From NCBI RefSeq assembly GCF_009931115.1, contig NZ_CP047491.1, positions 1,811,501-1,875,500 of the forward strand: 64,000 nt of DNA, in the 5' to 3' direction. Made by a program: the position numbers and the translations under genes. The notes below the pieces were generated by a model. The model was not told the DNA's origin. It made no database searches and was given only the letters and a program-made list of their open reading frames with translations. The DNA is from Microbulbifer hydrolyticus. GTDB lineage: Bacteria; Pseudomonadota; Gammaproteobacteria; Pseudomonadales; Cellvibrionaceae. Below are positions 51,206-53,077 of this stretch, in pieces; the stretch's first letter is position 1; every line of letters begins with the position of its first letter.

Positions 51206-51667
51206 ATGGCGATCTATAAGAAAGTGCGCACGCCCTGCATCGGGGTCTGCTCCACAGGGATAGGTGACAACGTTTGCCGCGGTTGCAAGCGTTTCGCCCA
51301 TGAAGTGATCGACTGGAATGCATATTCTGAGGAGCAACGCCGCATTATTGCAGAGCGCCGTGAAGGTTACCTTGCAAATGCCGTGCGCAGTCAGCTTGAA
51401 ATCATCGACCGGGATCTCTTGTTGAGCCAGTTGCGCCACCAGCAGATCCGCTTCAACCAGGACGAGAGCCCGTACTGCTGGGTGTTCGAGTTACTGCGCG
51501 CCGGCGCCAGTCAGATCAACGACCTGGCCGCGTTCGGCCTGGCGCCCACCCTGGCGGCCAGGGGGGTGCCGCTGGTCGAGGTGCGCCGCCGGATTGATGA
51601 GGACTTCTACGCGTTGTCGGAATCCTATTATTTGCGCTTCGTTTCACCCGGCCTGCAGGCGGGCTGA
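51206..51667 (+). CDS. DUF1289 family protein
   Basis: The 153-residue product begins with KKVRTPCIGVCSTGIGDNVCRGCKRF, the four-Cys DUF1289 motif (about residues 8-30), probably a small metal or iron-sulfur site. This is followed by HEVIDWNAYSEEQRRII. The remaining 90 residues are helical and include ESPYCWVFELLRAGA. ATG 51206 is chosen because the family starts near MAIYKKVRTPC; an ATG at 51188 is also possible. The lipid kinase gene follows 38 bases after the stop, so the two may form an operon. Confidence 0.82.
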   Translation: MAIYKKVRTPCIGVCSTGIGDNVCRGCKRFAHEVIDWNAYSEEQRRIIAERREGYLANAVRSQLEIIDRDLLLSQLRHQQIRFNQDESPYCWVFELLRAGASQINDLAAFGLAPTLAARGVPLVEVRRRIDEDFYALSESYYLRFVSPGLQAG

Positions 51668-51705
51668 ACTCTCCGGTCAGGCGGTCGCTTACAGGGAGTA
51701 TTACC

Positions 51706-52620
51706 ATCGCTCAGCATATTTCAACGGATCGCCGCGCTCTGCTGGTTCGAAACCCGGGTAGCCGGCAAGGCGATAGCGCCGATCTCGACGCCGGTCTCGA
51801 AAGGCTGGAGGCTGCCGGGGTCCATGTGGACCAGCAGTTGTCGCGGTCCGCGGACCAGACGCGGGACATCATTCGGAAGCACTGTAATGACGTCGACTTC
51901 GTGATTATCGGGGGAGGTGACGGCACCATCAGTTCCTCTGCCAGCGTATTGCTCGAGTGCGGCCTGCCATTTGCCATACTTCCCCTTGGAACCGCCAACG
52001 ACCTGGCGCGCTCCCTCGGTATTGAAAGCCTGGATCAGGCGTTTGCCACCATTTGTGACGGTCACACAACCAGGATCGATCTGGGGGTCGTCAACGACCA
52101 TCTGTTTTTTAATGTGGCCAACCTCGGACTGGGTGTGCATGTCACCGAGGAGCTGACCCCGGAAGTGAAGCAGCGCTGGGGGGTGTTCAGCTATCTGAAG
52201 GCGCTGGCGGCAGCGCTTGCCCGCCATCGTCAATTCAGGGTATCGATCAATGTCGATGGTGCGGAGCATTCGATGCGCTCGATGCAGCTGGCGGTGGGTA
52301 ACGGTCGCTTTTATGGCGGTGGCAATGTTGTCGATCAGAAGGCCACAATCGACGATGACCTGCTACACCTTTACAGCCTGAGGCCGCAGACGTTCTGGGA
52401 GCTGCTCACGCTTGCCCCTTTGCTGCGAGGGGGCCGACACGACCTTGCTCGGCGTATTTTTGCCACTTCCGGAAGGCAGCTGAACGTTTCCACACGTCCG
52501 TCCGGCATGGCGATTCATGCCGACGGTGAGCCCGTGACTCAGACTCCGGCTGCTTTTTCCGTGCGGTCGGCGGCACTTGAGGTTTTGGTGCCAGCAGACT
52601 CCCCATTACTGAATCGGTGA
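51706..52620 (+). CDS. YegS/diacylglycerol-kinase-like lipid kinase with a non-AUG start
   Basis: This lipid kinase of the DAGK catalytic family has about 304 residues. The first conserved strand RRALLVRNPGSRQGD lies in frame from about 51730. The nucleotide loop VIIGGGDGTISSSAS and FAILPLGTANDLARSLG follow. No ATG, GTG or TTG occurs in this frame between the TGA codons at 51595-51600 and a GTG at 51826, which would delete the conserved N-terminus. AGGGAG at 51693-51698 sits seven bases before ATC 51706, so an ATC (or ATT 51700) start is likely. The ending VPADSPLLNR and the acidic-loop regions match YegS. Sequencing error seems less likely because the frame is intact. Confidence 0.8.
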   Translation: MAQHISTDRRALLVRNPGSRQGDSADLDAGLERLEAAGVHVDQQLSRSADQTRDIIRKHCNDVDFVIIGGGDGTISSSASVLLECGLPFAILPLGTANDLARSLGIESLDQAFATICDGHTTRIDLGVVNDHLFFNVANLGLGVHVTEELTPEVKQRWGVFSYLKALAAALARHRQFRVSINVDGAEHSMRSMQLAVGNGRFYGGGNVVDQKATIDDDLLHLYSLRPQTFWELLTLAPLLRGGRHDLARRIFATSGRQLNVSTRPSGMAIHADGEPVTQTPAAFSVRSAALEVLVPADSPLLNR

Positions 52621-52627
52621 CAGATTG

Positions 52628-53077
52628 ATGAGCATATTGCGCAATGACACCCAGGTGGCGCTCAACGACTTGCACAGGGCGTTGCAGGAAAGTGCGGATC
52701 ACTACCAATATGCGGCAGACTTCCTTGAAGGCTCCGCCGCCAGCGACGTGTGTGCGAAGCTGGTGCGAGAGAGACGAGGGCTTGCGGCCCGGGTGGCAGA
52801 TGCCATCCGGGAATCCGGCGAGCTACCGGGTGAGGCGGATCGTGACCTGGAGGCTGCCGAGCAAATCAGGCAGCGTTTCGAGGCCCTGGTTGAGGGGGAC
52901 GAAGTATCTGCCGTGGTTACCCATCGACTGGATGCTGAGGGGGAGTTTCTCGCATTTCTCGAGCGTGACGTGCGGCCGCTACTGGGGGATACGCACTCGG
53001 AGCTGCTGAGCGAGAGTCGGAAAAGTGTCGACCATGCCCGCGAGCTCCTCGGGTCACTGGGTGCGGGTGGGGAGTAG
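52628..53077 (+). CDS. Ferritin-like four-helix protein (DUF2383-like)
   Basis: The 149-residue product is fully helical. Pattern ALNDLHRALQESADHYQYAADFLEG and KLVRERRGLAARVADAIRE resembles DUF2383 ferritin-like bundles (Gln/Asp/His and Glu residues near helix centres). The rest continues with helices ending HARELLGSLGAGG. A metal site is possible but not certain. It starts at ATG 52628, eight bases after the lipid kinase stop, so it is in the same operon. Confidence 0.6.
   Translation: MSILRNDTQVALNDLHRALQESADHYQYAADFLEGSAASDVCAKLVRERRGLAARVADAIRESGELPGEADRDLEAAEQIRQRFEALVEGDEVSAVVTHRLDAEGEFLAFLERDVRPLLGDTHSELLSESRKSVDHARELLGSLGAGGE

What the first reader, a model, noticed from the sequence alone, without database searches (positions are those of the whole stretch)
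51661..51830. Lipid kinase whose conserved N-terminus has no AUG/GUG/UUG start
The frame from the TGA codons at 51595-51600 through 52620 is open and encodes RRALLVRNPGSRQGD, the first strand of the DAGK family. Yet the first standard start is GTG 51826, which would remove it. AGGGAG at 51693-51698 is well spaced (7 bases) from ATC 51706. ATT/ATC starts are rare and, for infC and pcnB, are used for IF3-dependent control. This may be a translationally regulated gene that annotation pipelines truncate by about 40 residues.
Basis: partly seen in the sequence, partly recalled or inferred. Interest (0 to 1): 0.72.

Follow-up and report, generated by a model that had tools for sequence, protein, structure and literature searches.

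The report
Lipid kinase gene starting at AUC
A bacterial lipid-kinase gene appears to begin at the rare codon AUC instead of AUG/GUG/UUG. This weak start is kept across most species of the genus Microbulbifer that carry the gene, so annotation software probably truncates the protein, and the cell probably uses the weak start to keep its level low.

Summary
No ATG/GTG/TTG lies in frame between TGA 51598 and GTG 51826, yet the conserved first strand and NP motif of a PRK13057/YegS-type lipid kinase lie in that stretch. Comparison with relatives supports ATC 51706 as the real start. Of 48 Microbulbifer genomes, 22 carry the gene. At the aligned position 15 have ATC (one in a truncated copy), 1 ATT, 3 GTG and 3 TTG; outgroup genera have ATG or GTG. 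A Shine-Dalgarno element sits 7-8 bases upstream in nearly all ATC/ATT copies. Codon periodicity begins at this position. Upstream stops lie 2-13 codons away in ten species. Residue 2 is small in 20 of 22. Both neighbouring genes keep ATG in all 20 genomes scored. Sequencing error, the GTG 51826 start, translational coupling and an unusual initiator tRNA all fit poorly. This is a lineage-specific, conserved AUC start, of the same kind as infC and pcnB (AUU) and S. aureus ccpN (AUA). I found no earlier report of a conserved bacterial AUC start in the library searched. The most likely role is constitutive damping of translation, possibly IF3-sensitive. Neither effect was measured, and there is no ribosome or peptide evidence.

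The parts
51706..51708 (+). ATC initiation codon (AUC)
   Evidence: Aligned with GTG/TTG/ATG starts of orthologues and with ATC/ATT in 16 of 22 Microbulbifer genomes.
51693..51698 (+). Shine-Dalgarno element AGGGAG, 7 bases before the ATC
   Evidence: GGAG/AGGAG/GGAGG at spacing 7-8 in 15 of 16 ATC/ATT loci; the other (L005) has AGGG at spacing 9. Duplex with the 16S tail -7.7 kcal/mol.
51706..52620 (+). Lipid kinase CDS, 304 aa when started at ATC (PRK13057; YegS/BmrU family)
   Evidence: NF009604 327 bits (cut-off 274), TIGR00147, PF00781 and PF19279 above cut-off; solved relatives YegS and DgkB.
51706..51825 (+). 40 codons lost if GTG 51826 were taken as the start; holds the first strand and the NP motif
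   Evidence: Coding-type substitution pattern 0.285/0.215/0.628 by codon position; profile alignment.
51826..51828 (+). First in-frame canonical start-like codon (GTG), judged internal
   Evidence: Aligned codon is CTG, CTC, GTA, GTC, GTT or ATC in 13 of 20 relatives aligned.
51206..51667 (+). Upstream DUF1289 gene; ATG start conserved; stop 38 bases before the ATC
   Evidence: PF06945; ATG in 20 of 20 genomes scored; the gap to the kinase ranges from 33 to 1188 bases.
52628..53077 (+). Downstream gene of unknown family; ATG start conserved
   Evidence: ATG aligned in 20 of 20 genomes with an intact kinase copy scored; no Pfam or NCBIfam match.

Best explanation
Translation of this lipid kinase starts at AUC 51706, read by the ordinary initiator tRNA with a mismatch at the third base and helped by a well-placed Shine-Dalgarno element. 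The AUC start most likely arose in the ancestor of the Microbulbifer copies from a canonical start and has been kept because it holds synthesis of the enzyme at a low level, as AUU does for pcnB. Because AUC is among the codons against which IF3 discriminates, synthesis should also rise when IF3 activity is low. Shown: the gene, the position of the start, its conservation and its gene-specificity. Inferred: mismatch decoding, low output, IF3 sensitivity, and the benefit of keeping a diacylglycerol/lipid kinase scarce.
For: ATC/ATT in 16 of 22 congeners at the position where the others have GTG/TTG and outgroups ATG/GTG. SD spacing 7-8 in 15 of 16. In-frame stops 2-13 codons upstream in ten of the 16, e.g. 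TAG-GCT-ATC in L010, with no canonical codon in between in nine of them. Coding periodicity downstream only. Among 15 ATC/ATT rows the start codon needs 1 change on the tree, against 3-6 for six conserved internal Ile codons, so the third base is held. Residue 2 is S/T/A/G/P in 20 of 22, as expected after initiator Met. Neighbouring genes use ATG in 20/20 and 20/20. Initiator tRNAs are two copies with a normal CAU anticodon. infC in the same genus starts at ATT in the 30 genomes read and in the window's own genome, so IF3-sensitive starts operate there. Review: AUG/GUG/UUG are not discriminated by IF3, whereas AUU, AUC and AUA are (PMC4611024). In S. aureus, conserved AUU/AUA starts gave about 10% of AUG output in poor medium (PMC13009471).
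Against: No expression, proteomic or ribosome-profiling data. Two clades have moved to GTG or TTG, so a weak non-G-ending codon is not indispensable. In L007/L008 an ATG lies three codons downstream (about 17 bases from the SD) and could also be used. No genome-wide census of start codons could be made. Drift to a tolerated poor start in a little-needed gene, absent from 26 of 48 congeners, would look partly similar.
Confidence: 0.72

Rival explanations
1. Translation starts at GTG 51826 and the upstream 40 codons are untranslated or vestigial.
For: It is the first canonical start in the window frame, so standard gene finders would choose it.
Against: It removes the first strand and NP motif present in all orthologues; codons 10-39 evolve as coding sequence; the aligned codon is not a start codon in most relatives.
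Confidence: 0.03
2. AUC is the start but is not selected for low output: a mildly harmful substitution drifted to fixation in the genus ancestor and was tolerated because the gene is weakly expressed or dispensable.
For: The gene is absent from 26 of 48 congeners and truncated in one; two clades returned to canonical codons.
Against: ATC is held with only one ATC/ATT change across 15 diverged species, while ATG would be one substitution away; internal Ile codons change 3-6 times. The SD stays well spaced.
Confidence: 0.2
3. The kinase is made by coupling, readthrough or frameshifting from the upstream DUF1289 gene, so no start codon is needed.
For: In the window the gap is only 38 bases and the kinase frame is open back to 51598.
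Against: The gap varies from 33 to 1188 bases, in-frame stops lie just upstream of the ATC in ten species, and each locus keeps its own SD.
Confidence: 0.02
4. Sequence error or strain-specific mutation of an ATG start.
For: ATC differs from ATG by one base.
Against: The same ATC occurs in 14 other independently sequenced congeners, plus one ATT.
Confidence: 0.01

Closest known systems
infC (IF3) AUU start, autoregulated
   Same: Non-G-ending AUN start codon with an SD, conserved; present as ATT in this genus.
   Different: The product here is a lipid kinase, so no autoregulatory loop through IF3; the codon is AUC.
Escherichia coli pcnB AUU start (Binns and Masters 2002, cited in PMC13009471)
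   Same: A non-translation gene limited by a weak start.
   Different: Different gene and codon. In Microbulbifer itself most pcnB copies examined have a conserved ATG.
Staphylococcus aureus ccpN (AUA) and cvfC1 (AUU), PMC13009471
   Same: Conserved non-canonical starts with SD support in non-translation genes.
   Different: Those were shown by Ribo-Ret and reporters and have extended SDs; here the SD is ordinary in length and the evidence is comparative only.
YegS/DgkB/BmrU soluble lipid kinases
   Same: Protein family, domain order, GGGDGT and PLGTAND motifs.
   Different: Homologues in outgroup genera begin at ATG or GTG.

Membership tests
Genes with a conserved non-canonical (AUU/AUC/AUA) start | No usable ATG/GTG/TTG start | tested here: met
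   None between TGA 51598 and GTG 51826; nine congeners have a stop 2-13 codons upstream with no canonical codon between.
Genes with a conserved non-canonical (AUU/AUC/AUA) start | Codon aligns with the canonical start of orthologues and is conserved between species | tested here: met
   15 ATC, 1 ATT, 3 GTG, 3 TTG in the genus; ATG/GTG in outgroups.
Genes with a conserved non-canonical (AUU/AUC/AUA) start | Shine-Dalgarno at proper spacing | tested here: met
   Spacing 7-8 in 15 of 16 ATC/ATT loci.
Genes with a conserved non-canonical (AUU/AUC/AUA) start | Ribosomes or peptides map to the codon | not testable with these tools
   Needs ribosome profiling or N-terminal proteomics.
Genes with a conserved non-canonical (AUU/AUC/AUA) start | Lower output than AUG, and IF3 sensitivity | not testable with these tools
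   Needs reporters in IF3-altered strains.
infC-type IF3 autoregulation | The gene product itself discriminates against its own start codon | tested here: not met
   Product is a lipid kinase; only indirect IF3 control is possible.
PRK13057 / YegS-Rv2252-BmrU lipid kinase | Profile score above the curated cut-off over full length | tested here: met
   NF009604 327.2 bits (cut-off 274); TIGR00147 158.6 (118.65).
PRK13057 / YegS-Rv2252-BmrU lipid kinase | Nucleotide-binding motifs NP.S, GGGDGT, PLGTAND | tested here: met
   All present in the 304-aa reading, the NP motif only if translation starts upstream of 51826.
PRK13057 / YegS-Rv2252-BmrU lipid kinase | Lipid kinase activity | not testable with these tools
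   No assay.

The most novel reading that the evidence does not exclude
A lineage-conserved AUC start couples membrane-lipid phosphorylation to IF3/initiation-factor status, so that the kinase is made preferentially when IF3 is limiting or ribosome status changes, as a regulatory link from translation capacity to lipid metabolism. It would be the first conserved AUC start described in bacteria that I could find.
Probability: 0.2. Interest if true: 0.75.

Novelty: new member of a known kind. Interest (0 to 1): 0.55.

Why it matters
Conserved non-canonical starts are known for a handful of bacterial genes. This adds a metabolic enzyme and the codon AUC, kept across a genus next to genes that all use AUG. 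It shows that gene finders limited to ATG/GTG/TTG would remove part of an active site, and that comparing orthologous starts can expose such genes. It also offers a testable natural case of dosage control by start-codon choice, with GTG and TTG sister clades as evolutionary contrasts.

Tried and rejected
RNA structure around the start: six loci folded no better than shuffles (z -1.0 to 2.1). Rfam: nothing credible, one chance hit below gathering. Translational coupling to DUF1289: rejected by variable gaps. Altered initiator tRNA: two normal CAU copies. pcnB as a second control for weak starts: mostly ATG in this genus. Genus-wide relaxation of start choice: not supported by the two neighbouring genes, ATG in 20/20 each. 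Literature: searches for an AUC/ATC start codon gave mitochondrial, eukaryotic or engineered cases and no conserved bacterial AUC gene among those I looked at; the library omits most subscription journals, and the 64-codon paper (PMC5397182) is not held.

Full report
WHAT WAS CLAIMED AND WHAT IS THERE. Both are literally true. The frame is closed by TGA TGA at 51595-51600 and TGA at 52618-52620. The first ATG/GTG/TTG is GTG 51826. AGGGAG occupies 51693-51698, and 7 bases separate it from ATC 51706.

WHAT THE GENE IS. Started at ATC it encodes 304 residues scoring 327 bits against NF009604 (PRK13057 lipid kinase; cut-off 274), and above cut-off for TIGR00147, PF00781 and PF19279. The closest solved structures are YegS and DgkB. 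The DAGK_cat profile aligns from its second position, about 28 residues upstream of GTG 51826, so the GTG start would remove the first strand and the NP motif.

COMPARISON WITHIN THE GENUS. Of 48 genomes of the genus, 22 carry the gene; the family search found no other strong copy. At the aligned start position there are 15 ATC (one of them in the truncated copy of G003), 1 ATT, 3 GTG and 3 TTG. Outgroups (Gilvimarinus, Pseudohongiella) have ATG and Marinimicrobium GTG. Genera of the same family or order sampled also offer canonical codons only.

WHY ATC IS THE START. (1) In ten of the sixteen ATC/ATT species an in-frame stop lies 2-13 codons upstream. In nine of these no ATG/GTG/TTG lies between that stop and the ATC; the most extreme is TAG-GCT-ATC in L010. 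(2) GGAG, AGGAG or GGAGG precedes the codon by 7-8 bases in 15 of 16; L005 has AGGG at spacing 9. (3) Codons 10-39 vary as coding sequence (0.285, 0.215, 0.628 for positions 1, 2, 3), the same as the rest of the gene (0.295, 0.196, 0.576), while the ten codons examined upstream (-14 to -5) vary equally at all positions (0.69, 0.70, 0.72). (4) Residue 2 is Ser, Thr, Ala, Gly or Pro in 20 of 22, as is usual after initiator methionine (general knowledge). (5) The middle base T is invariant in 22 of 22 and the preceding base is always a pyrimidine.

WHY IT IS CONSERVED AND NOT MERELY TOLERATED. On the protein tree the ATC rows fall into clades separated by the GTG and TTG clades; five start-codon changes suffice for all rows. 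With the outgroup taken as the root, the simplest reading is one gain of ATC in the genus ancestor and later replacement by GTG, by TTG and once by ATT; the direction is my inference, since the count does not depend on the root. Among the 15 intact ATC/ATT rows the start codon changed once, while six conserved internal isoleucine codons changed 3-6 times on the same tree. This is a modest but direct sign that the third base is held. The upstream and downstream genes keep an aligned ATG in 20 of 20 genomes scored each, so the weak start is specific to this gene.

MECHANISM. The initiator tRNAs of this genome are ordinary (two copies, CAU), so AUC must be read with a third-base mismatch (inference). 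IF3 discriminates against AUU, AUC and AUA but not AUG, GUG and UUG (PMC4611024). The genus itself uses ATT for infC in the 30 genomes read and in the window's genome. In S. aureus, conserved AUU/AUA starts of ccpN, cvfC1 and citZ give about a tenth of the AUG level in poor medium (PMC13009471). By analogy the AUC start should keep the kinase scarce. I put this damping role at about 0.7 and a true IF3-responsive regulatory role at about 0.2. No RNA structure, Rfam element or conserved leader supports a more elaborate switch.

RIVALS. GTG 51826 as start, sequencing error, and coupling or frameshifting from DUF1289 (gap 33-1188 bases) are all contradicted. The serious rival is neutral tolerance of a poor start in a dispensable gene (0.2). 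The gene is missing in 26 of 48 congeners and truncated in one, but a return to ATG would take one substitution and none of the ATC lineages shows it.

STATUS AGAINST KNOWN CASES. It works like pcnB and ccpN: a non-translation gene limited by a non-canonical start. It is not an infC-type autoregulatory loop. The codon AUC and the gene are new to this list as far as the held literature shows, but the library is incomplete. I therefore call it a new member of a known kind.

LIMITS. All evidence is comparative. A genome-wide census was not possible, so I cannot say how many other genes in this genome start at AUC, AUU or AUA.

Noticed in passing
L137 (G003:C1:2931000-2932700): In one congener the ATC-start kinase is cut off after about 170 conserved residues, and sequence of the downstream gene follows in another frame; it looks like an internal deletion and a gene being lost.
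   Followed up: partly
L061-L090 and L135 (infC loci): infC starts at ATT in the 30 Microbulbifer genomes read and in the window's genome, within a well-conserved SD-to-ATTAAACGA context.
   Followed up: partly
L091-L120 (pcnB loci): pcnB, AUU-started in E. coli, has a conserved in-frame ATG (ATG CTC AAT/AAC) in most Microbulbifer; a subset (e.g. L112, L114, L117-L120) has a long variable N-terminal extension whose start is unclear.
   Followed up: no
L012, L013, L014: The clade with a GTG start has its SD-like GAGGG only about 3 bases from the start codon, a poorer spacing than in the ATC species; a stronger codon may have been offset by a weaker SD (single clade, so only suggestive).
   Followed up: no
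L003, L004, L010, L011: The DUF1289-kinase gap grows from about 40-100 bases to about 500 bases in two genomes and about 1.2 kb in two others, suggesting insertions between the genes; content not examined.
   Followed up: no
window 52628-53077: Downstream gene conserved next to the kinase (33-52% identity) with no Pfam or NCBIfam family; an unnamed small protein that may work with the kinase.
   Followed up: no
genus-wide: The kinase is present in only 22 of 48 Microbulbifer genomes, so it is an accessory rather than a core gene.
   Followed up: partly
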